Under the pieces are notes generated by a model. The model saw only the letters and a list, made by a program, of their open reading frames with translations. It did no database searches and was not told the origin of the DNA. Positions 1 through 32,190 of a stretch of 32,617 nucleotides of DNA are shown here, piece after piece. Made by a program: the position numbers and the translations under genes. Each line of letters starts with the position of its first letter. Within the stretch, counting starts at the first letter, position 1. This stretch comes from Lachnospiraceae bacterium (GTDB taxonomy: Bacteria; Bacillota; Clostridia; Lachnospirales; Lachnospiraceae): assembly GCA_017526745.1 (NCBI GenBank), contig JAFXQX010000002.1, positions 1 through 32,617 on the forward strand, read 5' to 3'.

Positions 1-59
1 AGGGGGACGGAGGTGTTGTCTCAAAGAATTTGAGACAACACCTCCGTCCCCCTGTCTCA
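1..59. repeat. REP-like 29-nt repeat, inverted pair (left copy cut by window edge)
   Basis: Bases 31-59 are a full copy in the C-rich orientation (TGAGAC at one end, GTCTCA at the other). Bases 1-23 are the right-hand part of an oppositely oriented copy, with its first 6 nt outside the window. The linker is 7 nt. The pair can fold into one long hairpin and lies just beyond the 3' end of the ddh gene. Confidence 0.9.
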
Positions 60-3116: not shown

Positions 3117-3200
3117 AATCATTCCTCCCTTGATCAAACTTCAGAACCTCCCAACACTACATAACAGTATATTCCGAAACTCCCCCACTTTCAATACGAA

Positions 3201-3290
3201 TGAGACAGGGGGACGGAGGTGTTGTCTCATGTCAGGTCCGCGAAGCGGGCGTGACTAATTTTGAGACTCGGGGACGGAGGTATTGTCTCA
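3201..3290 (+). repeat. Composite repeat: two direct REP-like copies around a GC-rich hairpin
   Basis: Full 29-nt copies lie at 3201-3229 and 3262-3290, both in G-rich orientation. Between them, 3231-3255 forms a hairpin with 11-nt arms (GTCAGGTCCGC and GCGGGCGTGAC) and a GAA loop, with one mismatch and one G-T wobble. The same spacer occurs at 8307-8331, so this is a composite unit and not chance spacing. Confidence 0.88.
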
Positions 3291-3481
3291 AAATGACCCT
3301 CTAAGCAGAACTGCCTCAATTATTCGACTTTAAATATTATTGTTGCACCGGAACATCACCGGTGTTAATATAAACAACATCTAGGCAGTTCGATTTTCAT
3401 ATCATTAAACGTTCGTTTATTTGAAATTCCTGCTTACAATCTGCAAACTCATATCTGTTTTATTCTAGAAAGAGGTGAATT
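3291..3481 (+). other. Structured leader / possible left end of the RAYT element
   Basis: No gene. An outer inverted repeat GAACTGCCT (3308-3316) and AGGCAGTTC (3383-3391) encloses an inner hairpin CACCGG (3346-3351) and CCGGTG (3359-3364). Together with the repeats at 3201-3290 this fills the gap between 3116 and the transposase start. It could be a cruciform substrate (left end) for the transposase or a leader structure. AGAGGTGA just before 3482 is the transposase ribosome site. Confidence 0.5.
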
Positions 3482-4261
3482 ATGCCAAGAATCCCCAGAA
3501 AACAAAGCAGTACTAACGTCTATCATGTAATGATCCGCGGCAATAACAGGCAGAACATTTTCATGGACAACATGGACAGGATGACCTTTCTCAAATATCT
3601 TGCCGAATGCAAGGCCAAATTCGGCTTCAAGATATACGCATACTGCCTTATGACCAATCACGTTCACCTGCTGATCAGGGCCGAAAGCAGCACTCTTGGG
3701 TTGATATTTCGGCGCATCGACTCCCGCTACGCGATGTGGATCAATAAAAAATACGACCGCGTCGGCCATGTGTTCCAGGATCGTTTTAAAAGTGAAAATG
3801 TCGAGAACGAGCGATACTTCCTGACCGTGCTCAGGTACATCATTCAAAATCCCGCAAAAGCCGGGCTTGAAAAGCAGCCGGGAAGTTATCCCTGGACGAG
3901 TTTCCGCGAATATGAAGGCGGCCCCGGAACACTGACCGATACATCGCTTGCGATAAAGATTGCAGGGTCGCAAAAAACACTTGCCAGGTATCTGCAAACT
4001 CCTGTAAGGGAAAAAGTGATGGATATGAACGAATCTGTGCAGCATATCTCAGATGAGGCAGCAAAAAGCATCATATCGCTGATCGCTGATCATTTATCGA
4101 TCGAGGACTTCAAAAACGCAGACAAAATAGTGAGGCGGAAAAGCATTGTAGAAATGCTGGATGCGGGTCTTGACATCCGTCAGATCGTCAGGCTGACCGG
4201 CATCTCCCGGGCGACGGTTTACCGGTGTGCAAATCAATTCGAACTCACCTCGCAGCCGTAA
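3482..4261 (+). CDS. REP-associated tyrosine transposase (RAYT), Y1/IS200-like
   Basis: A 259-aa single-strand DNA transposase of the HUH Y1 superfamily. N-terminal signature NVYHVMIRGNN (residues 12-22); metal-binding HUH motif H60-V-H62 in MTNHVHLL; GHVFQDRFKS (95-104); and the YxxxNP signature in LRYIIQNPAKAGL, where Y119 is the expected nucleophile. The C-terminal extension ends in a helix-turn-helix (about 224-255, DIRQIVRLTGISRATVYR), as in many Firmicute RAYTs. It is the only plus-strand gene in the first 19 kb, starts 11 nt after AGAGGTGA, and has inverted repeats on both sides. All key residues are present, so it is probably active. Likely substrates are the 29-nt repeats in this window (inference). 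Confidence 0.93.
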   Translation: MPRIPRKQSSTNVYHVMIRGNNRQNIFMDNMDRMTFLKYLAECKAKFGFKIYAYCLMTNHVHLLIRAESSTLGLIFRRIDSRYAMWINKKYDRVGHVFQDRFKSENVENERYFLTVLRYIIQNPAKAGLEKQPGSYPWTSFREYEGGPGTLTDTSLAIKIAGSQKTLARYLQTPVREKVMDMNESVQHISDEAAKSIISLIADHLSIEDFKNADKIVRRKSIVEMLDAGLDIRQIVRLTGISRATVYRCANQFELTSQP

Positions 4262-4358: not shown

Positions 4359-4395
4359 ATGCCAAGCGAAAGCGCGGCCAGATCCTGCCAACTTT

Positions 4396-4424
4396 TGAGA
4401 CGGCACCTCCGTCCCCGAGTCTCA
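4396..4424 (-). repeat. REP-like 29-nt repeat, single copy
   Basis: Full-length copy in C-rich orientation between the transposase and the EamA gene. Its loop variant ends GGTGCC instead of GGTGTT. Confidence 0.88.
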
Positions 4425-5446: not shown

Positions 5447-6067
5447 TCAGTCCCATAGTTTCATCAAAATTGCCCTGCAGGGTGCGCCGTCTGCACCTCC
5501 GAGATTAAGCGGTGCGGCGCTTAACATATATACACCATCTGGAACATCTGCCAGTCTTATCCCTTCAAGAAGTACGATCTGTGCCGAAAGCATCGTCATA
5601 TGAACCGCTTTGGGAGCATCCTCCGGTCCGACTGTCTGGGATTCGTTCCCGAACAGTTTTATCCCCTCTTTTGCAAATACATCTGCGGCTTCTTCCGATA
5701 CTACGGCTTTTCCTTTTACCAGTATCCGAAATGATGCCCGGTCATCCGGAAAGGGATGAACCTTATCAGCTTCCCTTGCCTTCTCCATGATATGCCGCGC
5801 ATCCTCTGCCTTGATCACCCCGTCAAACCCTGCCACATACGCCGGCCCGATGAACCTGTTAAGATCAACTTTATCTATCGTTGCAGCGCCGTCTATGAAA
5901 TGGAACGGCGCATCAACATGTGTTCCGTTATGGGCACACATTTTGATGCCGGTCAGATTGCAGACGCCTCCGTTTTCGATCTTCTCCATCCATATCCTCT
6001 CCGGCTGCGGGTCTCCCGGAAACACGGTACAGTCAAAAACTTCCTGCGAAATATCATATATTTCCAT
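5447..6067 (-). CDS. Cyclase family protein (kynurenine formamidase-like metal hydrolase)
   Basis: 206-aa metal-dependent amide/ester hydrolase. The family signature HNGTHVDAPFHF (about residues 47-58) supplies the His, Asp and His metal ligands; DISQEVFDCTVFPGDP at residues 5-20 is the usual N-terminus and GNESQT lies in the usual central position. The start at MEIYD is chosen because GGAGG is 4 nt upstream; the longer ORF to 6145 is translation through a repeat (MRLGDGG). No tryptophan-degradation genes are nearby, so the true substrate is unknown. First gene of the cyclase-macro-EamA operon. Confidence 0.85.
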   Translation of the reverse strand: MEIYDISQEVFDCTVFPGDPQPERIWMEKIENGGVCNLTGIKMCAHNGTHVDAPFHFIDGAATIDKVDLNRFIGPAYVAGFDGVIKAEDARHIMEKAREADKVHPFPDDRASFRILVKGKAVVSEEAADVFAKEGIKLFGNESQTVGPEDAPKAVHMTMLSAQIVLLEGIRLADVPDGVYMLSAAPLNLGGADGAPCRAILMKLWD

Positions 6068-6081
6068 ACATCCTCCAAAAC

Positions 6082-6144
6082 TGAGACAAGGGGACGGAGG
6101 TGTTGTCTCAAAAACTGAGACAACACCTCCGTCCCCCAGTCTCA
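6082..6144. repeat. REP-like inverted pair, 5-nt linker
   Basis: Copies 6082-6110 (G-rich) and 6116-6144 (C-rich) are separated by AAAAC. They form an almost perfect 29-bp hairpin that fills the gap between the FMN-reductase stop (6149) and the cyclase ribosome site. One loop-base pair differs between the arms. Confidence 0.92.
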
Positions 6145-8236: not shown

Positions 8237-8276
8237 ATCATTTCCCCGCCTTACGGCAAAATCACACAACCGGTTT

Positions 8277-8349
8277 TGAGACTCGGGGACGGAGGTATTG
8301 TCTCATGTCAGGTCCGCGAAGCGGGCGTGACTAATTATGTGTTGTCTCA
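8277..8349 (+). repeat. Composite repeat with a truncated second copy
   Basis: A full copy at 8277-8305, then the same 25-nt hairpin spacer as at 3231 (here 8307-8331), then TAATT and only the last 12 nt of a second copy (8338-8349). It is the 3201-3290 composite with the 5' part of its right copy lost. Confidence 0.88.
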
Positions 8350-12659: not shown

Positions 12660-12669
12660 ACTTTAAAAT

Positions 12670-12732
12670 TGAGACGACACCTCCGACCCCCGGTCTCAAA
12701 ACTTGAGACTGGGGGTCGGAGGTATTGTCTCA
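12670..12732. repeat. REP-like inverted pair sharing a private core variant
   Basis: Copies 12670-12698 and 12704-12732 with linker AAACT. Both have GGGGGTCGG where every other copy except the diverged one at 24018 reads GGGGACGG or similar, so the two arms changed together. The outer TCA at 12730-12732 is the flavodoxin stop codon. Confidence 0.92.
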
Positions 12733-13221
12733 TTCCGCCTTAAGGGCATTGGCAAATTCTTCTATCTTCCGATCGGTCTCTTCAGAATGCCTGGCCTTCG
12801 GATCAATAAATATGGCAGTCTGTTCAAACGCTGTCTCGTTCAGGCACTTTGAGAGCTTATCAAGGGCTTTCTCTGCTCCGGAACCGGCCTGGCAGGCAAA
12901 AGCAGCAAATCTCTTCCCCGCAAGTGCCTCCCTGTTATCCTCGATGAAAGTCCTTATCGGAGGAGCAAATGTTGATGCCCATACAGGAAAGCCGAATATA
13001 ATGCGGTCAATTTCCGAAAGGTCGATATCATAGCTTTCAAGCTCCGGCTTTTCCGCCATGACCGCACTCTTGCCGCCCCAGAAATACTTGGCAAACCCCT
13101 TGGTGCTGTATGCCTTCTTGGGTGTAAGGCAGCGAACGCGCGCATCAAGCTTTTCCTTGAGAACCTGCGCCACATATTCCGTGTTCCCTTCAAGTGAATA
13201 ATAAACAATAAGATCCTTCAT
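12730..13221 (-). CDS. Flavodoxin-family protein
   Basis: 163 aa. The FMN phosphate loop is YYSLEGNTEYVA (T/S-x-x-G-N-T, residues 8-19), then the 70s-loop FGFPVWASTFAPPIRTF (about 78-94) and FACQAGSGAEKA in place of the 90s loop, typical of flavodoxins used by FMN electron carriers in anaerobes. GGAGG lies 9 nt upstream of the ATG. The TGA stop is shared with the repeat terminus. Probable role: low-potential electron transfer or NAD(P)H-quinone-type reduction. Confidence 0.86.
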   Translation of the reverse strand: MKDLIVYYSLEGNTEYVAQVLKEKLDARVRCLTPKKAYSTKGFAKYFWGGKSAVMAEKPELESYDIDLSEIDRIIFGFPVWASTFAPPIRTFIEDNREALAGKRFAAFACQAGSGAEKALDKLSKCLNETAFEQTAIFIDPKARHSEETDRKIEEFANALKAE

Positions 13222-16769: not shown

Positions 16770-16792
16770 AACGCTCACCCTTTCTTAAAATA

Positions 16793-16855
16793 TGAGACAG
16801 GGGGACGGAGGTATTGTCTCATGTCATGAGACAATACCTCCGTCCCCCTGTCTCA
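16793..16855. repeat. REP-like perfect inverted pair, 5-nt linker
   Basis: Copies 16793-16821 and 16827-16855, linker TGTCA. The two arms are exact reverse complements over 29 nt, giving a 63-nt perfect hairpin unit in the gap between the zinc-ribbon gene end and the HTH gene start. Confidence 0.95.
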
Positions 16856-16869
16856 CTTCGTCCCTTTGG

Positions 16870-18996: not shown

Positions 18997-19077
18997 TGAG
19001 ACAGGGGGACAAACTGAGACAGGGGGACGGAGGTATTGTCTCAACCATTGAGACAATACCTCCGTCCCCCTGTCTCA
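18997..19077. repeat. REP-like perfect inverted pair plus a 5' fragment
   Basis: 18997-19010 is the first 14 nt of a copy (TGAGACAGGGGGAC) broken off, followed by AAAC. Copies 19015-19043 and 19049-19077 are exact reverse complements with a 5-nt linker ACCAT. A stray GTCTCA end follows at about 19080. Confidence 0.92.
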
Positions 19078-19104
19078 CCAGTCTCACCCAAGGAGGGCCA
19101 TGGC

Positions 19105-24060: not shown

Positions 24061-24651
24061 TCACAACTTCCTTGCGATAACATTTATCCAATAGGCATCC
24101 TTGTTGCGTCGCACATCATGCGATTGCCATATCTCTTCTACCTTAAATCCGGAAACACCGGCGAATAATTCCTGCACAGATACTTCATTCATATCATGAA
24201 AATATCTGCCATCTCTTTCTCCGAAATAATCTCCATATTTAAACGATGCATATAAAACTCCCCGGGGTCTTAACGCCAGCCTAACCCTGTCAAGTATACC
24301 GGGAAGTTCCTCCGGGCTGACATGGAGCAGTGACGCACAGGCAAATACCCCGTCATATCTGTCGGTTTCAGCAAGCTCCTCAAACCGCATGCACTTGACT
24401 TTGATCCCTGTGTACTCTGACGCTTTAATGCAAAGCTCCTGCGACGCATCTATTGCCTCCACCTTATAACCGGCATCAATGAAGCTCTTAGTGTCTCTGC
24501 CCGAGCCACATCCAAGATCCAGTATTTCTCCGCCCGGCGGTACATACTTCAGGAATCTGTCTCGCAGATCCCCGGTATCAACATTTATAGTCCCCTCGAT
24601 AAAATCACGGGCATTAGCATTGTAGTATTCAGTCGTATTTTTCGTATTCAT
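24061..24651 (-). CDS. Class I SAM-dependent methyltransferase
   Basis: 196 aa, small-molecule type (TehB/UbiE-like fold). SAM motif I LDLGCGSGRD (residues 44-53), acidic motif II in VEAIDAS, motif IV FACASLLHVSPEEL, then RPRGVLYASFKYG. No DNA-methylase DPPY/NPPF motif, so it is not a classical restriction modification enzyme. It is the last gene of the minus-strand operon; its ATG overlaps the stop of the gutted Nudix remnant (ATGA). A second, internally deleted version lies at 26016-26171. Confidence 0.88.
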   Translation of the reverse strand: MNTKNTTEYYNANARDFIEGTINVDTGDLRDRFLKYVPPGGEILDLGCGSGRDTKSFIDAGYKVEAIDASQELCIKASEYTGIKVKCMRFEELAETDRYDGVFACASLLHVSPEELPGILDRVRLALRPRGVLYASFKYGDYFGERDGRYFHDMNEVSVQELFAGVSGFKVEEIWQSHDVRRNKDAYWINVIARKL

Positions 24652-24796
24652 GATCTCGTCAACAGTTTATATCTGATATATTCAATCAGCTCCAGATCAG
24701 CCGGCAGCCTTTGAATTCTCCATATCCCCGCTGCGTAGCGAAAATCATACCACCATCCGTAATGACCGCCACAACCCTGACTGTTTTAAGCGCCAT
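24648..24796 (-). pseudogene. Gutted Nudix (MutT) remnant
   Basis: Starts MALKTVRVVAVITDGGMIF ... GYGEFKG, matching the N-terminus of the intact Nudix at 28378-28764 (MNTIRVVAAII ... GYGEFKG), then jumps to LPADLELIEYIRYKLL, matching its C-terminus (LPADRELVEIIKNNL). The whole Nudix box is missing; the joint lies at a shared GGC and shifts frame, so translation stops after about 36 aa. GGAG lies 4 nt before the ATG. The end keeps the ATGA overlap with the methyltransferase. Confidence 0.85.
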
Positions 24797-24828
24797 GTTT
24801 CTCCATCTTATAGCACTAATCTATATAA

Positions 24829-26016
24829 TCATATATTCTTTCCTAGTCTGTCCCATATCTCGTAACCCTGTCTTCTGGCAGAATCATAAATCGGCTGCAT
24901 ATTCTTCTGAAGAATTCCGTAAAACTCATCTTTTGAATTGCCTTTCCGATACAGCTCGCGTCCTGCCCATATGGAGTGAAGGTTATCTCTGTAGCACTCT
25001 TCGAATTTCTTATGTATCGCATCTTTTTCATGAATCAGGCTATATAGTAAGTATTGATTATTTGCAAACTTCTTGAAAAACGGCTCCCATTGCGGAAGAC
25101 GATTGCTCTTTGATGAATTAAGTGATGAATCCATCGGCATTAAGTTCCAGAGCTCATCGTTCATAACAAATGACCATGGGATAAAATGATCAACATCGTA
25201 TTTCTTCGGGATGATAGCATTGTCAGTGAATACATCTCTGATCTCGGTAATGCTTAATACCATCTCCCACAGTTCCCTAACCTTTCCGAGTTTTCGCATT
25301 TTCTCGTCCATAGGTGATAATTTATATACAAGTCCGGGAACCTCGGGATTATTATTCTGTAACCATTTCAGTTTTTCAAACCTTATCCACCCCAATATAG
25401 GGACGGTGTTATCCCTGATCATCTCAGACCAAGCAGGTTGAAAAAATATTTCCCTCTTTAATCCACTTGAATTACCCAGTGTATATGGTAATAGTTTTTC
25501 CGCGGCATTAAATCTCTCGACATATGCTATGATCCTTGATTTACTCTCATCGCTTTGAACAGGGTTTTTTACAGGCAGGAAACCGGCAAGTGCTCGGTAA
25601 GGAACCATATTGGTTAACTGGTTTTTTTCTACCCGGATTAAATCATCATACTTTTTTATGGCGTTCTTTATCTCAATCTCTGATGAATTCGCAGATAGAT
25701 TGCTGATCTCGGCCAGCTTAAGGACAGCTCTCTCCAGACCGTCCCTGACCATTCCATCAACTCTGAGTCCGCTTAAATGAATATGGAATTCACGTACAGA
25801 ATACCAGGCGCTGCAAATCATTTCGTTAATTACATCATCAAAAGTCGCCTGGTGAATATCCTCAGATATTAGAATTACTATGGCTTCAAGCCAATAGAAT
25901 TTATAACAATAAGAAGGATCTTTCATCATACGTGAAAATCCTTCTAGATCAAGCTTATTATTGTACAGCTCATCAATATGAATTGAAAAATCACCTGATC
26001 TCAGAGTGTAATCCAT
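24829..26016 (-). CDS. HNH-endonuclease domain protein
   Basis: 395 aa. The C-terminal third has an HNH core: VDHFIPWSF (H277), LWNLMP (N291) and SSLNSSKSNRLP (N300), a pattern seen in restriction-like and defence nucleases. The first 270 residues are a helical domain that I do not recognise, with a hydrophobic patch (FYWLEAIVILI). Start MDYTLR at 26016 overlaps the stop of the methyltransferase remnant (TGATG) and uses AAGGAA in that remnant as ribosome site; the longer ORF to 26046 reads into the remnant. Probable DNA cleavage, target unknown. Confidence 0.83.
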   Translation of the reverse strand: MDYTLRSGDFSIHIDELYNNKLDLEGFSRMMKDPSYCYKFYWLEAIVILISEDIHQATFDDVINEMICSAWYSVREFHIHLSGLRVDGMVRDGLERAVLKLAEISNLSANSSEIEIKNAIKKYDDLIRVEKNQLTNMVPYRALAGFLPVKNPVQSDESKSRIIAYVERFNAAEKLLPYTLGNSSGLKREIFFQPAWSEMIRDNTVPILGWIRFEKLKWLQNNNPEVPGLVYKLSPMDEKMRKLGKVRELWEMVLSITEIRDVFTDNAIIPKKYDVDHFIPWSFVMNDELWNLMPMDSSLNSSKSNRLPQWEPFFKKFANNQYLLYSLIHEKDAIHKKFEECYRDNLHSIWAGRELYRKGNSKDEFYGILQKNMQPIYDSARRQGYEIWDRLGKNI

Positions 26017-26171
26017 CACAACTTCCTTGCGATAACGTTTATCCAATAGGCAGCCTTGTTGCGGTGCACGTCATGCGATTGCCATATCTCTTCTACCTAA
26101 TACAGAGCTCCTTCGACAAAATCACGGGCATTAGCATTGTAGTATTCAGCCGTAATGTTGTCGGTATTCAT
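26016..26171 (-). pseudogene. Gutted methyltransferase remnant
   Basis: About 156 nt keep the first 22 or so codons of the methyltransferase (MNTDNITAEYYNANARDF, compare MNTKNTTEYYNANARDF) and the last 26 (VEEIWQSHDVHRNK ... WINVIARKL), with the SAM-binding core removed. The joint reads TAT-TAG, so translation ends at 24 aa; the tail stays in phase. Its ATG overlaps the MazG stop and its TGA overlaps the HNH start. It is not identical to the intact copy, so it came from a diverged paralogue. Confidence 0.9.
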
Positions 26172-26488
26172 AGTCTGTTATACTTGTCTGCTTTTCCTTT
26201 GGCTTTATCCACAGGATATTTCGACTCATTCTGAGACATTTTCATATTCACGATCTCATCGACATCAAGACCAAGCTTATCTAACATATTCTGACAATAT
26301 ACAATTACATCTGCCAATTCTTCTTTTATGTGATCCAGATCATAATTCTCATTATCCCACTGGAAACACTCAAGTAATTCTGCCGCTTCTATTACAATTG
26401 ACTTTGCAAGATTAGCCGGAGAATGAAACTGATCCCAGTCTCTTTCATCTGAAAATCTTCTGATTCTCTCAATCGTCTCCTGTTTCAT
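26168..26488 (-). CDS. MazG-like nucleotide pyrophosphohydrolase
   Basis: 106 aa, all-alpha NTP pyrophosphatase. The metal-binding signature is complete: E34-A-A-E37 (VIEAAELLECFQW) and E57-x-x-D60 (EELADVIVYC). It starts MKQETIERIRRFSDERDW, like the MazG/RS21-C6 group that hydrolyses dCTP or non-canonical dNTPs. The start overlaps the upstream helicase stop (ATGA, 26485-26488) and its stop overlaps the methyltransferase remnant, so it is translationally coupled in the operon. Confidence 0.9.
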   Translation of the reverse strand: MKQETIERIRRFSDERDWDQFHSPANLAKSIVIEAAELLECFQWDNENYDLDHIKEELADVIVYCQNMLDKLGLDVDEIVNMKMSQNESKYPVDKAKGKADKYNRL

Positions 26489-28362
26489 TTCTTAGCATGC
26501 TCCAATCTTTTCTTTAAGTACTCCTTCATACCTTTATCAGTGCAATAAATGTAACATCCTTTCATTCCGCGTGTCATAAGTGTACGATACGTATTCTTAA
26601 TAATCTCATCAGCTCGCGACAATGCCGCATCCGGCGATTCCTTATATAGTTTCTTTATACCTTTTAATGACTGGTCTGTTTTGGCACGTTTTGAGAAATC
26701 TGTTATAACCTTTCCGTTCTCATACCGTATATCATCTCCAACGATCACACCAACATAATCAAATTCAAGGCCCTGAGATGTATGAATACATCCGGCTTCA
26801 TTTATTGATGTTTCACTTACAGCAAACGGTTCGCCACTTCCAAGATTCCAGCTCATCTCAAAATCTCCGATCTTGATATCATGAACATCAGTTGAATTCT
26901 TTCCGCTTGCTATCCACTCCCAACAATAGCCCGCAAGTACTCTTGCCCTGTTGGCCTGCCTGTTCTTCTCGATCACTATTTCCCGCATCTCCTCGGGAGA
27001 GTCACATATTCTTATATCGTAGTCTATACCTTCCAGATCGTAATTAGCAGTCTCCCGGATATCCAATACATTATCTATCCAAGCAAGGTATCCATCTGAC
27101 CCGTTACACCTGAACTGTGATTTTAACTCCAGGTAATGAAGTTCTGATCCGGCATCCTTTGCCCACTTTTCTATTTCCGCAACAGAGCCGATGTCGTCCA
27201 TTGTCACTCGCTGACTCTCATCTATGAAGAAAACACTACAGTAAGCAGCGTGGATAATCTCTTTAATCTGATTTTCTCCAAGGTTATGAAACATTCCGGA
27301 TTTTTCATTGAGTCTGTGAGCTTCATCGACCAAAAGGCAATGGGCCATGTTTTCTCCGACCTCAGTATATGTCCCTGAGCCTTTGAACATATTATCAACG
27401 CTGCTCTTTTTTATCTGTCCTTTAAGTTTCTTCAAATAGACCTGCCGAGGGGCACTATTCTTGGAAACATACTGAACCATCTGATCTCTCCTTGTAAGTT
27501 CAGCAAGCAGATTGACTGCTATAACCGACTTGCCTGTTCCGGGTCCACCCTTGACGATAACAGTCCGCTTTTTAAGATCCTTCTGAGACTTGAGTGACAA
27601 TCGCAGAATTTCCTCATACGCAACCTTTTGTTCATCAATCATAATGAACTCGCGATTACCTTTCAGCATTGATCCAATTGCGTTTTGGAGGCTCTTGGAC
27701 GGCCTGATTTTTCCGTGATCTATAAGATATAAGACTTCCTTATGATCTCCTTTTTTGATGGATTGTTTTATGAAATCGCGAAGCTGCTGGAGCTGTCCTT
27801 TTGTATACGCCGGAGCTTCATCAAGATACTCTTGATACTGAATGGCATCGAGCGGATCATTCTCATGTCTGATATAATTGTGAAGACATGCACATGGAGA
27901 AAGCGTTACTGCGTTATCCTGAACAGCCTGATTATAATCCTGTATTAACTGAGCATATGACCACGCCTGATACGAAGGATGAACAAGTAATTGATTCCCT
28001 CCTCCAATATATGTTTCAACGAGCGCATCAGTTCCTGTCACTTCCTTTATGGAATCCCATTGTTTTAATTCCACAATAACCATTCCGGGTGAATCATTAT
28101 TCCCGTAACCTGATATCATAAAATCAACACGCTTCGATGTCTGCGGAATATTAAACTCTATCGCCACACCCGAATCATCAGGGATCTCATTATCATTCAG
28201 CACCTTGTACATATAGTTAAGTGAGTTTTCCCATGAACGGAATTCTGCTTTGGGAGTATGCTTTCCAAGCTTTTCCAAAACATTTTCTTCTATCTGTATT
28301 GCAATTGTGTCATTCTCACAGCTCTGTAAGAAGTCAGTTTTCAGACCATCGTACACGATCAT
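26485..28362 (-). CDS. DUF2075 (Schlafen group 3-type) helicase with N-terminal nuclease motif
   Basis: 625 aa. N-terminal PD-(D/E)xK-like core: D80 in KRVDFMI, E98-L-K100 in MVIVELKQW. Walker A GGPGTGKS (272-279), Walker B LLVDEAH, then QGLEFDYVGVIVGDD and YRTLMTRGMKG, the C-terminal helicase motifs of the DUF2075 family. The combination suggests an ATP-driven nuclease on DNA or RNA. AAGGGG lies 10 nt before the ATG. Gap to the upstream Nudix gene is 15 nt. Second of two such proteins in the operon; they are similar in layout but not close in sequence. Confidence 0.88.
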   Translation of the reverse strand: MIVYDGLKTDFLQSCENDTIAIQIEENVLEKLGKHTPKAEFRSWENSLNYMYKVLNDNEIPDDSGVAIEFNIPQTSKRVDFMISGYGNNDSPGMVIVELKQWDSIKEVTGTDALVETYIGGGNQLLVHPSYQAWSYAQLIQDYNQAVQDNAVTLSPCACLHNYIRHENDPLDAIQYQEYLDEAPAYTKGQLQQLRDFIKQSIKKGDHKEVLYLIDHGKIRPSKSLQNAIGSMLKGNREFIMIDEQKVAYEEILRLSLKSQKDLKKRTVIVKGGPGTGKSVIAVNLLAELTRRDQMVQYVSKNSAPRQVYLKKLKGQIKKSSVDNMFKGSGTYTEVGENMAHCLLVDEAHRLNEKSGMFHNLGENQIKEIIHAAYCSVFFIDESQRVTMDDIGSVAEIEKWAKDAGSELHYLELKSQFRCNGSDGYLAWIDNVLDIRETANYDLEGIDYDIRICDSPEEMREIVIEKNRQANRARVLAGYCWEWIASGKNSTDVHDIKIGDFEMSWNLGSGEPFAVSETSINEAGCIHTSQGLEFDYVGVIVGDDIRYENGKVITDFSKRAKTDQSLKGIKKLYKESPDAALSRADEIIKNTYRTLMTRGMKGCYIYCTDKGMKEYLKKRLEHAKK

Positions 28363-28377
28363 GATGAGTACCCCTTG

Positions 28378-28764
28378 TTACAAGTTATTCTTTATAATCT
28401 CAACCAATTCCCGATCAGCCGGAAGCCAATTCACGCTATCTATTGTATCTTTAGTTAACCATTTTGCAGCTTCAGCCTCTTTTAAAACAAGCTGGCCTTT
28501 CTCCACCTCTGCCCAGAAGCAGTCCATTGAAAGATGAAAGGTCGGATAATCATATTCGATCGTATGAATCAGATCTCCAACCTTAATCTCAGCCCCAAGT
28601 TCCTCTCTGATCTCTCGAACAAGTGCCTGTTGGGGAGTCTCACCTTCCTCGATCTTGCCTCCCGGAAATTCCCATTGGCCCTTGAATTCGCCATAGCCTC
28701 TGGCTGTGGCAAAAACCTTGTTGTTGTCTTTAATTATCGCTGCTACAACTCTGATCGTATTCAT
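28378..28764 (-). CDS. Nudix hydrolase, MutT/8-oxo-dGTP diphosphatase type
   Basis: 128 aa. A perfect Nudix box G36-x5-E42-x7-R50-E51-I-x-E54-E55-x-G57 (GGKIEEGETP ... REIREELGAE). The opening TIRVVAAIIKDNNKVFATARGYGEFKGQWEFPGG is split across residues 3-36 and matches small (deoxy)nucleoside triphosphate diphosphatases. The ATG overlaps the helicase stop (TAATG). With MazG it gives the operon two nucleotide-cleaving enzymes. Confidence 0.92.
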   Translation of the reverse strand: MNTIRVVAAIIKDNNKVFATARGYGEFKGQWEFPGGKIEEGETPQQALVREIREELGAEIKVGDLIHTIEYDYPTFHLSMDCFWAEVEKGQLVLKEAEAAKWLTKDTIDSVNWLPADRELVEIIKNNL

Positions 28765-30902
28765 TATATTTCTTCAAGGCCGAGGCTCTTAAGATATTTA
28801 TATGTTCCGTCATAATACTCCGGCAAGCGCGTATTGTCTTCCCAAAAACCACTGGCTGTTTTATGTGAATTTCCTTCCGGCACACATATGATCATTCCGA
28901 TCCGCGCTCTTGTTAGCAAAACCCTATAAGCATTAAGCATATATTTCATGAGCTCTTGTTTGGTTTCGCTAACAGGTAATACTTCGCCCCATTCCGTATT
29001 TCGATTAAACTTATAGAATCTCCATTTTCCATCTTCAAAACGCATATCCGCATCCCACAGAAGGCACGTATAATCTAGCTCTAATCCTTGTACCTGTATT
29101 TCTGTTGCCGCATCTTCTAAATAATTAGAAGACCTTGTATCACATTTATCATCGAGAAACCAATGAACTGCATTTTCATCACCCGATTGAAGAACATGTA
29201 TCCCCAAGGGTTTATACCTGGCAGATTCTTTTGTGATCAGCACACCTGTTCTTTCTGAGCCTCTGACTTTGTCGTGCAACCATCTTCTTGCTTTCTCCAT
29301 GTCTCTAGTCAGAATAATAGGATAATTCTCTTTTATCTCCTCGTAAATTGAAGAAGCATTACCATCTATTGCCAGTAACGAATGAACAAATGCAGAGAGT
29401 TTCTCTGCTCTAAAGGATCGCAAAGAGACAGCAAGATGTAATCGATCCGAATATACTACATTTTCATTATGTTTTAAAAGCTCATTGACTTTTCCCTCCG
29501 CATACTCTGTCTCTGTAAGTTTGGGAGAAATGTAAACCTTCCAATGTTTAAATAATTCGTTTAGAGCTCTGATCCACTCTGATATTCCGGCCTCGCCAGT
29601 ATTAATCTCTTGGCCACCGCCCACAAGACAGATTATTGTGGCCCAGTCTTCTCTCTGATCAAGAGACCAAATAAGAAAAGCGGCTTCTGACATCGGAAAG
29701 TTTGGTACCTTCAACTTGTTACCATAAGTGCCTCCCCTTTTTAAGTAATCGGACAGTCTCTTATGTGTCCATGATCGTTGCGCTTCATCAAATATTGCCA
29801 CATGCTCAACTTCTCCGAATCCCGAAGCATCCTGTTTGACTGCTTTTTGAGGATCAATTTCCAGAACACCATTTTCCACTGGATTCTTTATCTTAGCAAG
29901 CATATTGTCACGATATCGATGTATGATCTGTATAAATTTACCTACTTCTCTTCTTGAATCTGTTAGTTTCTTATTCTCTCCTCGTGCCTTACACTTTTCA
30001 CAGTTATCTTTTGCTAGTGCCTCATTTAGCACAGCTACAAGTGGGCCATTTCCGGAAAGATATACTGCTCCTTCATCCTCGGAAGGCTTATCTGTATTCT
30101 GATATGTTTGTTTTACAGCAACATCCAATCCGACCAACGTCTTCCCAGCACCGGGTACGCCAGTAACAAAACAGATACTCTTTTCTCCGTTCGTTTTGCT
30201 TTTATTAATCACATTCAAAATGAACGAAATTGTATCATCTGTAGTTACCTCATCAGCCTCATGTCGTGTAATATCCTCAACAGAATGGCTCTCATACAGT
30301 GTTCTTGCAGCTTCAATTATAGTAGGGGTGGGGGAATATGGACTAATAATCCAATTACTATCAACCGGTGTTTCCCCAGGGAAAAAGCTCAAAACCTCTG
30401 ATATCAGTTCTGATATTCCATCCTCACCTGTAATCAATGGATTAACAATCCGGTCATTGTAAACTGATTCCTGGATAAGAGACGATGAACCAGTATACTT
30501 TGTAGCAATCAGAATAGGAACAATCAATTTATCACGACTAAATTTGTGAAAATTCTTGAGATCCAAAGCATAATCCAAAACTTGATCCACATCCGCCTCA
30601 TGGATAACGGACTCACCCACTTTGAATTCAAGGCAGAATACAATACCACTAAGAAGTACTACCACATCAATTCGTTTACCAAGACGTGGAATATCATATT
30701 CGAAAACAATGCGGCCATCGGACTTTTCCCAAGGAATGAGTACTTCTTTCAATAATTCAATCTCGCGTTTCCATGCATCCCTGGTTGATGTCAATGCATC
30801 GCCATGATACTGATCGCATAATACTCCAAAAACGGATTCAGTTTCCCTATTTAGGAAAGACTCTATATCACTTTCATATAAACATCGCGGGGTTTTTCCC
30901 AT
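28764..30902 (-). CDS. DUF2075 (Schlafen group 3-type) helicase with N-terminal nuclease motif
   Basis: 712 aa from MGKTPRC (GAGG 7 nt upstream; the ORF to 30944 has no ribosome site for its first ATG). N-terminal PD-(D/E)xK-like motif D79 (GKRIDVVV) and E92-F-K94 (FCLEFKVGE). Walker A GVPGAGKT (248-255), Walker B VAIFDEAQRSW, later LELDYTCLLWDAD and YRVLLTRARIGMII as helicase motifs. It is the first gene of the operon. A CxxC pair (CEKCKA) lies near 317. Probable DNA- or RNA-acting motor nuclease; biological target unknown. Confidence 0.88.
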   Translation of the reverse strand: MGKTPRCLYESDIESFLNRETESVFGVLCDQYHGDALTSTRDAWKREIELLKEVLIPWEKSDGRIVFEYDIPRLGKRIDVVVLLSGIVFCLEFKVGESVIHEADVDQVLDYALDLKNFHKFSRDKLIVPILIATKYTGSSSLIQESVYNDRIVNPLITGEDGISELISEVLSFFPGETPVDSNWIISPYSPTPTIIEAARTLYESHSVEDITRHEADEVTTDDTISFILNVINKSKTNGEKSICFVTGVPGAGKTLVGLDVAVKQTYQNTDKPSEDEGAVYLSGNGPLVAVLNEALAKDNCEKCKARGENKKLTDSRREVGKFIQIIHRYRDNMLAKIKNPVENGVLEIDPQKAVKQDASGFGEVEHVAIFDEAQRSWTHKRLSDYLKRGGTYGNKLKVPNFPMSEAAFLIWSLDQREDWATIICLVGGGQEINTGEAGISEWIRALNELFKHWKVYISPKLTETEYAEGKVNELLKHNENVVYSDRLHLAVSLRSFRAEKLSAFVHSLLAIDGNASSIYEEIKENYPIILTRDMEKARRWLHDKVRGSERTGVLITKESARYKPLGIHVLQSGDENAVHWFLDDKCDTRSSNYLEDAATEIQVQGLELDYTCLLWDADMRFEDGKWRFYKFNRNTEWGEVLPVSETKQELMKYMLNAYRVLLTRARIGMIICVPEGNSHKTASGFWEDNTRLPEYYDGTYKYLKSLGLEEI

Positions 30903-30954
30903 GACAACACCTCGTGATTTTATTGATCCAAAACTTACAATCATTCTACCGCTT

Positions 30955-31025: not shown

Positions 31026-31307
31026 CTAAGCGGCGCCAAGTTTATGGCTTTTGTTGTATGAATCCATATCTTCGCTAGCTTTATCGATCACTTTGTTTCT
31101 GTCCTTTGCCGGCAGGGCAAGAATCTTTTCACACAGTACGTCCATGCAGTCTGCCAGGAAATATGCTGCATCCTCCGTGTGATCATCCTTGGCAAATTCA
31201 TAGATCCTGTCCCAATTCTCGGTAAGATCTTCCGCATTGAATTCTGCAAGCTCCCAGAAATCCATCTCCATGTTAAACATATAGCTGTTGTTAGATACGA
31301 TCGTCAT
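31026..31307 (-). CDS. Small acidic protein of unknown function
   Basis: 93 aa, soluble, pI low by eye: WELAEFNAEDLTENWDRIYEFAKDD, then AAYFLADCMDVLCEKILALP, then KVIDKASEDMDSYN. Two cysteines are in the middle helix. GGAGGGGAG precedes the ATG by about 8 nt. It stands alone between the helicase operon promoter and a repeat. It might be the first gene of the same locus, but a promoter separates it from the helicases. No family recognised. Confidence 0.7.
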   Translation of the reverse strand: MTIVSNNSYMFNMEMDFWELAEFNAEDLTENWDRIYEFAKDDHTEDAAYFLADCMDVLCEKILALPAKDRNKVIDKASEDMDSYNKSHKLGAA

Positions 31308-31416
31308 GATTTTCTCCCCTCCTGTTGTCGTATGCTGTCCTTCTTTGAGTCCTTCGGTAAACTAAGCATATGATTTTTACTGTCCAATAAAAATGGTGAA
31401 CAAATGTTTGCGGGGT

Positions 31417-31445
31417 TGAGACAACACCTCCGTCCCTTTGTCTCA
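31417..31445 (-). repeat. REP-like 29-nt repeat, single diverged copy
   Basis: Full copy in C-rich orientation, with loop AAAGGGACGG (three A where most have a G-run). The only repeat within the AT-rich right part. Confidence 0.9.
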
Positions 31446-31499: not shown

Positions 31500-31829
31500 T
31501 TATAGCTTTGTAAATTCATCAAGTTGCTTATCTACATCTCTTCCGGAATGCATAACCCGAATCACTGTAACCAATTTCTTTGTCCTATCGGGGATATAGA
31601 AAATAACATAATTATCAACAGGCACAACTCGTGTATTTCGACTCTTCCAGGGCTCTCTTTCATATTGCCGGAACTTCTCCGGATACTCTCCCAAGGAAAG
31701 GATTTTTTCTTCGATCCGGTCAAGCTGTCCGGCTGCATTCTCAGGTGAAAGAAGATCAAATGCTATATACTCAAAGATACCGCGAAGATCGTTCTCAGCC
31801 TGCTCCGTAAAGGTAACATCATATTTCAT
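31500..31829 (-). CDS. RelE/ParE-family toxin
   Basis: 109 aa. Characteristic order: MKYDVTFTEQAENDLRGIFEYI, ENAAGQLDRIEEKILSL, then beta strands VVPVDNYVIFYI and VTVIRVMHSGRDVDKQL, as in ParE/RelE folds. R in RVMHSGRD matches the RNase or gyrase-binding end. The start overlaps the antitoxin stop (ATGA), the standard antitoxin-first order. Whether it cuts ribosomal mRNA (RelE) or poisons gyrase (ParE) cannot be told. Confidence 0.87.
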   Translation of the reverse strand: MKYDVTFTEQAENDLRGIFEYIAFDLLSPENAAGQLDRIEEKILSLGEYPEKFRQYEREPWKSRNTRVVPVDNYVIFYIPDRTKKLVTVIRVMHSGRDVDKQLDEFTKL

Positions 31830-32134
31830 GCATTATAATCCCTTCGGATATCCGCAAAAACCTGAGCTGCAGATTTGGTACGCCCTGCCTGCATATCCGC
31901 ATATCCTTTCTCAAGTTCCATGTCCAAAGTCTCTGCGTTCATTCTCGAAATATCAACAGGTCTCGCAGTTGGAATCTTTACCTCAAACGGAAGACCCCTA
32001 TTTAGAATGATCTGCTTATAAAACATATTGATAGCATTAGATGCCGTGATCCCCAAAGTAGCCAGAATTCCCTCAGCCTGTTCTTTAACATCCGGCTCTA
32101 TTCTTGCATAAAGATTTGCTGATTTGGCTGCCAT
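31826..32134 (-). CDS. RelB/DinJ-family antitoxin
   Basis: 102 aa from MAAKSANLY (AAGGGG 9 nt upstream). ANLYARIEPDVKEQAEGIL then LGITASNAINMFYKQII is the ribbon-helix-helix of RelB/DinJ; the C-terminal half wraps the toxin. The earlier in-frame ATG (32173) lies upstream of the mapped promoter start, so it is excluded. It should repress its own operon by binding the promoter below. Confidence 0.9.
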   Translation of the reverse strand: MAAKSANLYARIEPDVKEQAEGILATLGITASNAINMFYKQIILNRGLPFEVKIPTARPVDISRMNAETLDMELEKGYADMQAGRTKSAAQVFADIRRDYNA

Positions 32135-32161
32135 ATCATCACGCCCCTTTCTTTTACCCAT

Positions 32162-32190
32162 ATTATAAGTCAATGTACGGACAAGAGCAA
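32162..32190 (-). promoter_or_regulatory. Toxin-antitoxin promoter
   Basis: TTGCTC (32190-32185), a 17-nt spacer and TATAAT (32167-32162) on the minus strand. Expected start near 32155, giving a 21-nt leader with the AAGGGG ribosome site. Confidence 0.65.

What the first reader, a model, noticed from the sequence alone, without database searches (positions are those of the whole stretch)
24061..30902. Candidate defence operon: two helicase-nucleases, Nudix, MazG, HNH and methyltransferase
Order on the minus strand: DUF2075-nuclease, Nudix, DUF2075-nuclease, MazG, methyltransferase remnant, HNH, Nudix remnant, methyltransferase. Five or more junctions overlap by 1-4 nt. Schlafen-type helicases, HNH nucleases and dNTP-degrading enzymes are each known from anti-phage systems, but I do not recall this combination. 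Nucleotide depletion (Nudix plus MazG) along with two motor nucleases suggests a system that both cuts phage nucleic acid and starves or sanitises nucleotides. The grouping is seen; the function is inference.
Basis: partly seen in the sequence, partly recalled or inferred. Interest (0 to 1): 0.78.

Follow-up and report, generated by a model that had tools for sequence, protein, structure and literature searches.

The report
Operon pairing nucleases with nucleotide cleaners
A bacterium carries a run of genes in which DNA-cutting motor enzymes sit beside small enzymes that look able to destroy unusual DNA building blocks; one of these pairings recurs in distant bacteria and archaea, which suggests a modular defence against foreign DNA that may also keep the cell's own DNA clean.

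Summary
The operon is real (24061-30944, minus strand): SLFN_A helicase, Nudix, SLFN_B helicase, MazG, methyltransferase remnant, HNH, Nudix remnant, methyltransferase. It is not an accident: a rumen Lachnospiraceae contig carries all six families intact, side by side, in permuted order (L125). SLFN_B has MazG directly beside it in 45 of 79 named loci from Bacteria and Archaea. In 299 same-family genomes 35 of 39 with SLFN also have this MazG, against 32 of 260 without. SauUSI-like genes have a Nudix of the same family within 1.5 kb in 28 of the 30 best loci. By sequence the MazG is closest to an archaeal pyrophosphatase and dCTP pyrophosphatase 1, and the Nudix set closer to NudG than to MutT; NudG and DCTPP1 are reported to hydrolyse 5-methyl-dCTP. 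Best mechanism (inferred): ATP-driven nucleases attack foreign, probably modified, DNA, while pyrophosphatases remove modified dCTPs so the host's DNA is not marked. Against: 4 of 5 tested genomes whose SLFN_B lacks a MazG neighbour have none at all; NCBIfam calls the Nudix MutT. Function untested. SLFN_A and Nudix are already PADLOC candidates; MazG matched no PADLOC model.

The parts
28764..30944 (-). SLFN_A: PD-(D/E)XK-like motif + Schlafen-group-3 (DUF2075) helicase, 726 aa from the first ATG (start at 30902 more likely)
   Evidence: PF09848 6.3e-64; PADLOC PDC-S41 9.7e-242; invariant M15, D93, E106, K108, Walker A, DEAQ in 11 sequences
28378..28764 (-). Nudix hydrolase, NudG/MutT type, 128 aa
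   Evidence: PF00293 5e-20; PADLOC PDC-S07 3.4e-49; Nudix box intact; Asp117 invariant in the set A7
26485..28362 (-). SLFN_B: PD-(D/E)XK-like motif + Schlafen-group-3 helicase, 625 aa
   Evidence: PF09848 2.2e-105; invariant D80, E98, K100, Walker A in A1/A3; aligns to SLFN_A nearly end to end
26168..26488 (-). MazG-like all-alpha NTP pyrophosphatase, DCTPP1-like, 106 aa
   Evidence: PF12643 3.2e-18; closest solved chains 4qgp, RS21-C6 and dCTP pyrophosphatase 1
26016..26171 (-). methyltransferase remnant: both ends kept, middle missing
   Evidence: 96-nt and 50-nt direct repeats with the intact copy at 92% and 90%
24829..26016 (-). HNH endonuclease, Cas9-HNH type, 395 aa
   Evidence: PF13395 5.4e-11; invariant D276, H277, N291, N300 in 32 sequences
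24648..24796 (-). second Nudix, remnant with internal loss
   Evidence: tblastn 62% over the first 29 residues; nucleotide comparison
24061..24651 (-). small class I SAM methyltransferase, 196 aa, overlapping the Nudix remnant by 4 nt
   Evidence: PF13649 1.1e-13; motif I invariant in 19 sequences

Best explanation
It is a modular restriction-type defence system built from pairs: a nuclease plus a small nucleotide enzyme. SLFN_B goes with a DCTPP1-like MazG; SLFN_A, or in relatives a SauUSI-like (type IV restriction) enzyme, goes with a NudG-like Nudix; HNH goes with a methyltransferase or a third pyrophosphatase. Shown: the genes, their conserved catalytic motifs, the recurrent pairings, the genome-level co-occurrence of SLFN helicases with this MazG in one family, and the sequence kinship of the two pyrophosphatases to enzymes reported to hydrolyse 5-methyl-dCTP. 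Inferred: (1) the motor nucleases attack foreign DNA, probably DNA with 5-modified cytosines; (2) breakdown of such DNA feeds modified dCMP into salvage; (3) the pyrophosphatases hydrolyse the resulting modified dCTPs so that they are not built into host DNA, which would make it a target. They would thus do for a modification-dependent nuclease what the protective methylase does for an ordinary restriction enzyme, and would also blunt phages that make modified dCTP.
For: Six-family run intact in L125; variants with a SauUSI-like gene in place of SLFN_A and a PRA-PH-like enzyme in place of the methyltransferase (L169, L139). MazG directly beside SLFN_B on the same strand in 45 of 79 named loci (36 upstream, 9 downstream); MazG is 48 of 285 genes within two places of SLFN_B against 1 of 735 genes four or more away. 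35 of 39 SLFN+ versus 32 of 260 SLFN- genomes carry this MazG, Fisher p 1e-22; in six of the SLFN+ genomes it was found away from the SLFN gene (in one of them, G277, the SLFN gene ends at a contig end). Second sample: 4 of 5 SLFN_B genomes among 264 (the window's own included) have MazG, against 15 of 259 others. A SauUSI-like gene matches 7clg over its length at 1e-212, and such genes have a Nudix within 1.5 kb in 28 of the 30 best loci. MazG kin: 4qgp, RS21-C6/dCTP pyrophosphatase 1, with all 12 invariant residues of the set kept in the aligned RS21-C6. Nudix profile: E. coli CTP pyrophosphohydrolase 2rrk 106 bits versus MutT 90; Asp where the MutT-type 7syc has Asn. DCTPP1, RS21-C6 and Orf135 (NudG) are reported to hydrolyse 5-methyl-dCTP, which may come from degraded methylated DNA (PMC10742078), and DCTPP1 knock-down raised 5-methyl-dCTP and DNA methylation in human cells (PMC4491611). 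MazG also lies next to type I restriction R-subunit genes in two loci.
Against: 32 of 79 named SLFN_B loci have no MazG within two genes on the same strand (some end at contig ends), and 4 of 5 such genomes tested have none at E 1e-10, so MazG is not obligatory. In the phylum sample only 5 of 20 MazG loci other than the window's have an SLFN gene within 1.5 kb. No test shows that SLFN_A or SLFN_B needs modified DNA, and the window's genome has no SauUSI-like hit at 1e-60. NCBIfam places the window's Nudix just above the MutT equivalog cut-off (99.3 versus 97.9 bits), pointing to 8-oxo-dGTP. The methyltransferase is not explained. SLFN_A has a Nudix directly beside it in only 5 of the 11 loci seen, HNH a partner within two genes in 26 of 48. 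Shared ancestry of linked genes could give part of the co-occurrence.
Confidence: 0.4

Rival explanations
1. Nucleotide starvation: on infection the pyrophosphatases deplete dCTP or other dNTPs, stopping phage replication, while the nucleases cut phage DNA; pairing is for joint activation.
For: Close sequence kin hydrolyse dCTP itself; dNTP depletion is an established defence strategy (recalled: dCTP deaminase and dGTPase systems). A MazG domain is among predicted, unvalidated defence domains in DefensePredictor (PMC13092281).
Against: The same MazG occurs in genomes without a detected SLFN gene (32 by the cut-off used, an over-count) and in loci with no nuclease of these families within 1.5 kb, which sits badly with a dangerous effector.
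Confidence: 0.2
2. Offence against modified phages only: the pyrophosphatases destroy phage-made modified dNTPs (such as 5-hydroxymethyl-dCTP) and the nucleases destroy DNA already modified; host protection plays no part.
For: Same substrate kinship; SauUSI-like partner.
Against: Does not by itself explain why SLFN+ genomes keep the MazG even where it lies away from the SLFN gene (six genomes).
Confidence: 0.15
3. Defence island only: independently useful genes that travel together, without a joint mechanism.
For: Sampled neighbours near and far include known defence families; the window itself has two decaying gene copies; many HNH, SLFN_A and SLFN_B loci lack the partners.
Against: The SLFN_B-MazG pairing is directly adjacent (48 of 285 versus 1 of 735), holds on either side of SLFN_B and recurs across phyla; two Nudix-methyltransferase in-frame fusions exist.
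Confidence: 0.12
4. DNA repair or stress house-cleaning rather than defence: helicase-nucleases and MutT-type enzymes protecting against oxidised nucleotides.
For: TIGR00586 MutT match above cut-off; MazG and MutT are classic house-cleaning enzymes; a C-terminal Peptidase_S24 domain in some SLFN_B hints at a DNA-damage link.
Against: Patchy distribution (8 of 299 for SLFN_A, 39 of 299 for SLFN, 60 of 299 for HNH), low-GC stretch in the window, plasmid copies, SauUSI-like partner, PADLOC candidates.
Confidence: 0.1

Closest known systems
PADLOC candidates PDC-S41 and PDC-S07
   Same: SLFN_A and Nudix match these models over nearly their whole length
   Different: Listed as separate models; MazG matches no PADLOC model at E 0.1, and SLFN_B, HNH and the methyltransferase match only parts of others
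SauUSI-like type IV restriction enzymes (PLD + helicase + DUF3427)
   Same: ATP-driven nuclease; in relatives it takes the place of SLFN_A and is paired with the same Nudix
   Different: Not found in the window's genome at 1e-60; SLFN proteins have another helicase domain and a PD-(D/E)XK-like motif
Nhi / AbiO defence proteins
   Same: SLFN_B helicase region matches both models (1.7e-13, 3.2e-14)
   Different: Only part of the model matches; no pyrophosphatase partner in those systems (recalled)
dCTP pyrophosphatase 1 / RS21-C6
   Same: Closest named solved relatives of the MazG; the 12 invariant residues are shared
   Different: Here in operons with nucleases; activity not measured
E. coli NudG (Orf135, CTP pyrophosphohydrolase)
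   Same: Asp at the site where the MutT-type 7syc has Asn; profile scores above MutT
   Different: NCBIfam puts the window protein in MutT
Schlafen family
   Same: Group-3 helicase domain PF09848
   Different: No Schlafen RNase core domain reported by Pfam

Membership tests
PADLOC PDC-S41 (SLFN_A) | near full-length match to the model | tested here: met
   9.7e-242, profile 3-653 of 657
PADLOC PDC-S07 (Nudix) | near full-length match to the model | tested here: met
   3.4e-49, profile 3-130 of 135
Nhi nuclease-helicase | full-length match to the Nhi model by SLFN_B | tested here: not met
   1.7e-13, profile 179-356 of 470 only
Type IV restriction, SauUSI type | PLD + helicase + DUF3427 gene in this genome | tested here: not met
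   no match at 1e-60 in G000; found in relatives' versions of the operon
Type IV restriction in general | cleavage dependent on modified bases | not testable with these tools
   needs biochemistry
Type II restriction-modification | DNA methyltransferase of known type beside the HNH | tested here: not met
   196-aa Methyltransf_25-type protein, no DNA-methylase family matched in Pfam or NCBIfam; partial PADLOC mad2 match 5.6e-16
dCTP pyrophosphatase (DCTPP1-like) | best-matching named relatives and conserved motif residues | tested here: met
   12 invariant columns over 30 sequences, all kept in aligned RS21-C6
dCTP pyrophosphatase (DCTPP1-like) | hydrolysis of 5-methyl-dCTP | not testable with these tools
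   activity known only for relatives
NudG versus MutT | subgroup placement | tested here: inconclusive
   profile and Asp117 favour NudG; the single sequence is just above the MutT cut-off
Schlafen RNase | Schlafen (AlbA_2) RNase core | tested here: not met
   not reported in Pfam scan at E 0.1

The most novel reading that the evidence does not exclude
A general principle of modification-dependent immunity: motor nucleases that attack modified DNA carry their own dNTP-pool guard (a DCTPP1-like MazG or a NudG-like Nudix, two unrelated folds converging on 5-modified dCTP), which keeps modified bases out of the host chromosome and so replaces the protective methylase; the six-gene operon of this window unites three such nuclease/nucleotide-enzyme pairs.
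Probability: 0.35. Interest if true: 0.9.

Novelty: new variant of a known kind. Interest (0 to 1): 0.72.

Why it matters
Restriction that recognises modified bases poses a self-protection problem, because debris of modified DNA can be salvaged and put into the chromosome. A conserved coupling of such nucleases with pyrophosphatases for modified dCTP would be a simple answer, would give MazG and MutT-type 'house-cleaning' enzymes a role in immunity, and is directly testable with small enzymes. It also offers a partner gene by which to find further motor nucleases.

Tried and rejected
So no model exists, no fold search was run, the N-terminal nuclease rests on motifs alone and the HNH N-terminal half is unknown. 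PDB by sequence gave no convincing relative of SLFN_B (8 chains at E 0.0044 or weaker, best a 34-residue Walker A match to HelD) and, for HNH, short Cas9 HNH matches plus one weak other.

Defence-island enrichment: PADLOC scans of 115 of 224 near genes and 115 of 332 far genes (labelled families and genes under 120 aa left out) gave defence matches in both sets, of which the tool shows the first 25 of 113 and of 145 families. Near includes BrxC/BrxF, type I REase, DRT, AbiE; far includes type II methyltransferases, Thoeris ThsA, DndB. This does not separate near from far and no enrichment is claimed.

Considered and set aside: R-M system (methyltransferase not of a DNA type), toxin-antitoxin (the RelB/ParE pair upstream is separate), Nhi (partial match only). 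MazG as an obligate partner was dropped. The cut-off of 1e-30 missed more divergent SLFN genes that lie beside MazG, so the 32 'SLFN- MazG+' genomes are an over-count. A few loci were fetched twice under two ids (for example L060-L064; L041/L261, L079/L277, L084/L271, L099/L262), which inflates the ORF, cluster and Nudix lists slightly.

Literature: 10 searches, all that the cap allows. DUF2075+defence+Nudix: 0 papers. Two of Schlafen, MazG, 'phage defence': 12. Two of PADLOC, 'phage defence candidate', PDC-S: 17 (15 listed). PDC-S41: 0. PDC-S07: 6. Three of DUF3427, nudix, helicase, defense: 214 (15 listed). Five of MazG, nudix, HNH, helicase, anti-phage, pyrophosphohydrolase: 3. Two of SauUSI, nudix, MazG, pyrophosphatase, pyrophosphohydrolase: 1,034 (15 listed). 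SauUSI+nudix: 1, whose passages treat the two apart. 'type IV restriction'+MazG: 0. The library is open-access papers only. I saw passages of PMC11514479, PMC12839542, PMC7159879, PMC10742078 and PMC4491611, passages and one whole section of PMC13092281, and otherwise only search listings.
Full report
What is there. The window is the whole of contig C34 of a 2.6-Mb genome. The family sampled around it includes a contig (G213:C11) with the length, 442,649 b, of one named Lacrimispora saccharolytica An861 and a match at the same place, so the family is most likely Lachnospiraceae (inference). GC is 0.49 in 1-24000 and 0.36-0.46 in the genes of the operon. On the minus strand, 30944 to 24061, lie SLFN_A, Nudix, SLFN_B, MazG, a methyltransferase remnant, HNH, a Nudix remnant and a methyltransferase. 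Catalytic signatures are conserved: Walker A and DEA(Q/H) boxes and a D...ExK motif in both helicases, the Nudix box and an invariant Asp117, E34/E37/E57/D60 in MazG, D276/H277/N291/N300 in HNH, SAM motif I in the methyltransferase. SLFN_A and SLFN_B align nearly end to end, N-terminal motif included (hhalign probability 98.8).

The remnants. The methyltransferase piece between MazG and HNH and the Nudix piece between HNH and the methyltransferase keep their two ends and lack the middle. The methyltransferase piece and the intact copy share repeats of 96 and 50 nt at 92% and 90%. After these losses one intact copy of each family remains in the operon, which fits pruning of a doubled set (inference).

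The combination recurs. Starting from SLFN_B in 299 genomes of the same family (39 positive at 1e-30), from SLFN_A (8 of 299 at 1e-40) and from HNH (60 of 299 at 1e-20), neighbourhoods were fetched, and 1405 ORFs of 92 stretches (a few of them overlapping) were clustered. Eight families recur together: SLFN_B-like, SLFN_A, MazG, Nudix, HNH, methyltransferase, a SauUSI-like helicase and a roughly 100-aa pyrophosphatase-like protein ('PRA-PH-like', my label; no Pfam or NCBIfam match; its EE..E and EE..D pattern is that of the MazG superfamily by recall). Examples: SLFN_B-MazG-methyltransferase-HNH in L035 and L045, SLFN_A-Nudix-methyltransferase-HNH in L056. The named rumen contig L125 (JAILKT010000081.1) has SLFN_B-MazG-methyltransferase-HNH-SLFN_A-Nudix, all open; L169 (Pseudobutyrivibrio MAG) has SLFN_B-MazG-PRA-PH-HNH-SauUSI-Nudix; L139 has MazG-SauUSI-Nudix-PRA-PH-HNH-SLFN_B; L201, a Saccharibacterium, has SLFN_A-Nudix divergent from MazG-SLFN_B. 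In two genomes Nudix and methyltransferase are fused in frame, directly before HNH.

Is it more than chance? One locus (L197) had no intact focal ORF. Of the other 79, MazG is the direct same-strand neighbour in 45 (36 upstream, 9 downstream) and one gene away in 2; MazG makes up 48 of 285 genes within two places and 1 of 735 four or more away. Some of the 32 misses lie at contig ends; L139 has MazG further off in the same run and L157 has it beside SLFN_B on the other strand. For 41 adjacent pairs the two distance matrices correlate (Mantel r 0.45, 0 of 5000 permutations as high), but species phylogeny was not removed. HNH: neighbourhoods of 48 of the 71 matches were tallied; 26 of 48 have at least one partner family within two genes on the same strand, and 40 of 186 near genes belong to these families against 3 of 329 five or more away. 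SauUSI-like genes occur in 87 of 270 genomes; loci were returned for the 30 best hits only, and 28 of these have a Nudix of the same family within 1.5 kb. SLFN_A has a Nudix directly beside it in 5 of 11 loci (window, L056, L067, L125, L201) and two genes off in one more (L066).

Genome-level dependence. The MazG family was found in 67 of 299 genomes of the same sample at 1e-8. SLFN+ MazG+ 35, SLFN+ MazG- 4, SLFN- MazG+ 32, neither 228. In six SLFN+ genomes MazG lies away from the SLFN gene; in one of these, G277, the SLFN gene ends at a contig end. Of the four exceptions G249 has a broken SLFN_B, G045 a hit at a contig end, G079 a divergent SLFN with SLFN_A and Nudix beside it; G189 has an intact SLFN_B and no excuse. 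Of the 30 best MazG loci (window included, one by a 40-residue fragment) have an SLFN helicase within 1.5 kb and 2 more an HNH without SLFN; two of the remaining 11 adjoin type I restriction R-subunit genes. In a second sample of 264 genomes of the phylum 4 of 5 SLFN_B genomes (window's own included) have MazG against 15 of 259 others; the fifth, G531, has a partial SLFN hit. Of the 20 further MazG loci of that sample 5 have an SLFN gene within 1.5 kb and 15 do not. Against a strict need, of five named genomes whose SLFN_B lacks an adjacent MazG, only one (Floccifex) has MazG at 1e-10. So the dependence is strong in this family and not universal.

What the small enzymes look like. The MazG profile's best solved matches are a pyrophosphatase, 4qgp, and RS21-C6/dCTP pyrophosphatase 1. 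The Nudix profile's best are 5x1x, 3gwy (putative CTP pyrophosphohydrolase) and the CTP pyrophosphohydrolase 2rrk (E. coli NudG/Orf135 by recall; 106 bits), ahead of MutT 1mut (90 bits); the set has Asp, as 2rrk does, where the MutT-type 7syc has Asn. In one search, 2 of 54 Nudix entries were dropped for lack of a standard Nudix box; of 52 kept (48 distinct, four loci being listed twice) 49 show a PAD motif, two have Asp in a changed motif and one is truncated before it. That this site reads the base is recalled. NCBIfam, on the single window sequence, calls it MutT just above cut-off. Passages of PMC10742078 state that Orf135 in E. coli, RS21-C6 and DCTPP1 hydrolyse 5-methyl-dCTP, that MutT-type enzymes can too, and that its source may be degraded methylated DNA. 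Passages of PMC4491611 report higher 5-methyl-dCTP and DNA methylation after DCTPP1 knock-down in human cells.

What the nucleases look like. The SauUSI-like gene of L041 has PLD, helicase and DUF3427 domains and matches chain 7clg (953 residues, titled 'Putative helicase', SauUSI by recall) at 1e-212. A passage in PMC7159879 says DUF3427 is predicted to bind modified DNA from related domains in the type IV enzyme SauUSI. Nothing here shows that the SLFN proteins prefer modified DNA; that is inferred from SLFN_A sharing the partner and the slot with SauUSI-like genes.

Mechanism. The reading that best joins these facts is a nuclease plus pool-guard system, as stated in Best explanation, at 0.4. 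Starvation, offence against modified phages only, an unlinked island, and house-cleaning remain open. The methyltransferase is unexplained; its fusion to Nudix and its exchange with a third pyrophosphatase-like protein suggest that it too acts on a nucleotide (inference).

Known or new. SLFN_A and Nudix are PADLOC candidates PDC-S41 and PDC-S07. MazG gave no PADLOC match at E 0.1; SLFN_B, HNH and the methyltransferase match parts of other models only. In the searched library SauUSI and nudix meet in one paper, in separate passages, and 'type IV restriction' with MazG in none; subscription papers and preprints are not covered. DefensePredictor lists a MazG domain among predicted, unvalidated defence domains.

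Noticed in passing
L170, L171, L181, L184 (SLFN_B of 790-814 aa): SLFN_B variants carry a C-terminal Peptidase_S24 (LexA-like) domain, hinting at control by DNA damage; 4 of 4 such long proteins scanned (L170 below Pfam's cut-off).
   Followed up: partly
L099 6254-7837, L079 6035-7621 and similar ~530-aa proteins: A third SLFN helicase type replaces SLFN_B beside MazG; the one scanned, from L099, has a weak N-terminal GIY-YIG match (0.0019, below cut-off).
   Followed up: partly
L056 13073-14086; L081 3342-4355: In-frame fusions of the Nudix and the methyltransferase, each directly before HNH.
   Followed up: partly
L221, L230: DCTPP1-like MazG directly beside type I restriction R-subunit genes.
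   Followed up: partly
L243 1868-2875: MazG followed by an HNH_2 protein with a long N-terminal part of unknown type.
   Followed up: no
L163 4505-5080: A HEPN AbiU2-type gene lies between MazG and SLFN_B.
   Followed up: no
window 22-59, 3186-3291, 6067-6144, 8262-8306, 12661-12733, 16778-16856, 19000-19078, 31408-31445 and others: A short intergenic repeat (about 27 nt, TGAGAC...GGGGACGGAGGT...GTCTCA, in both orientations and often in facing pairs) in more than 20 copies, REP-like.
   Followed up: partly
window 3482-4261: A Y1 (IS200-like) transposase with a helix-turn-helix, flanked by the repeat above at 3186-3291 and 4387-4424; possibly a RAYT that mobilises it.
   Followed up: partly
window 31500-32173: A RelB/ParE toxin-antitoxin pair lies just upstream of the operon, with a 93-aa ORF without Pfam match (31026-31307) between.
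   Followed up: no
L049 7871-11629: Two tandem SLFN_B-type genes (36% and 64% identical to the window's) before one MazG.
   Followed up: no
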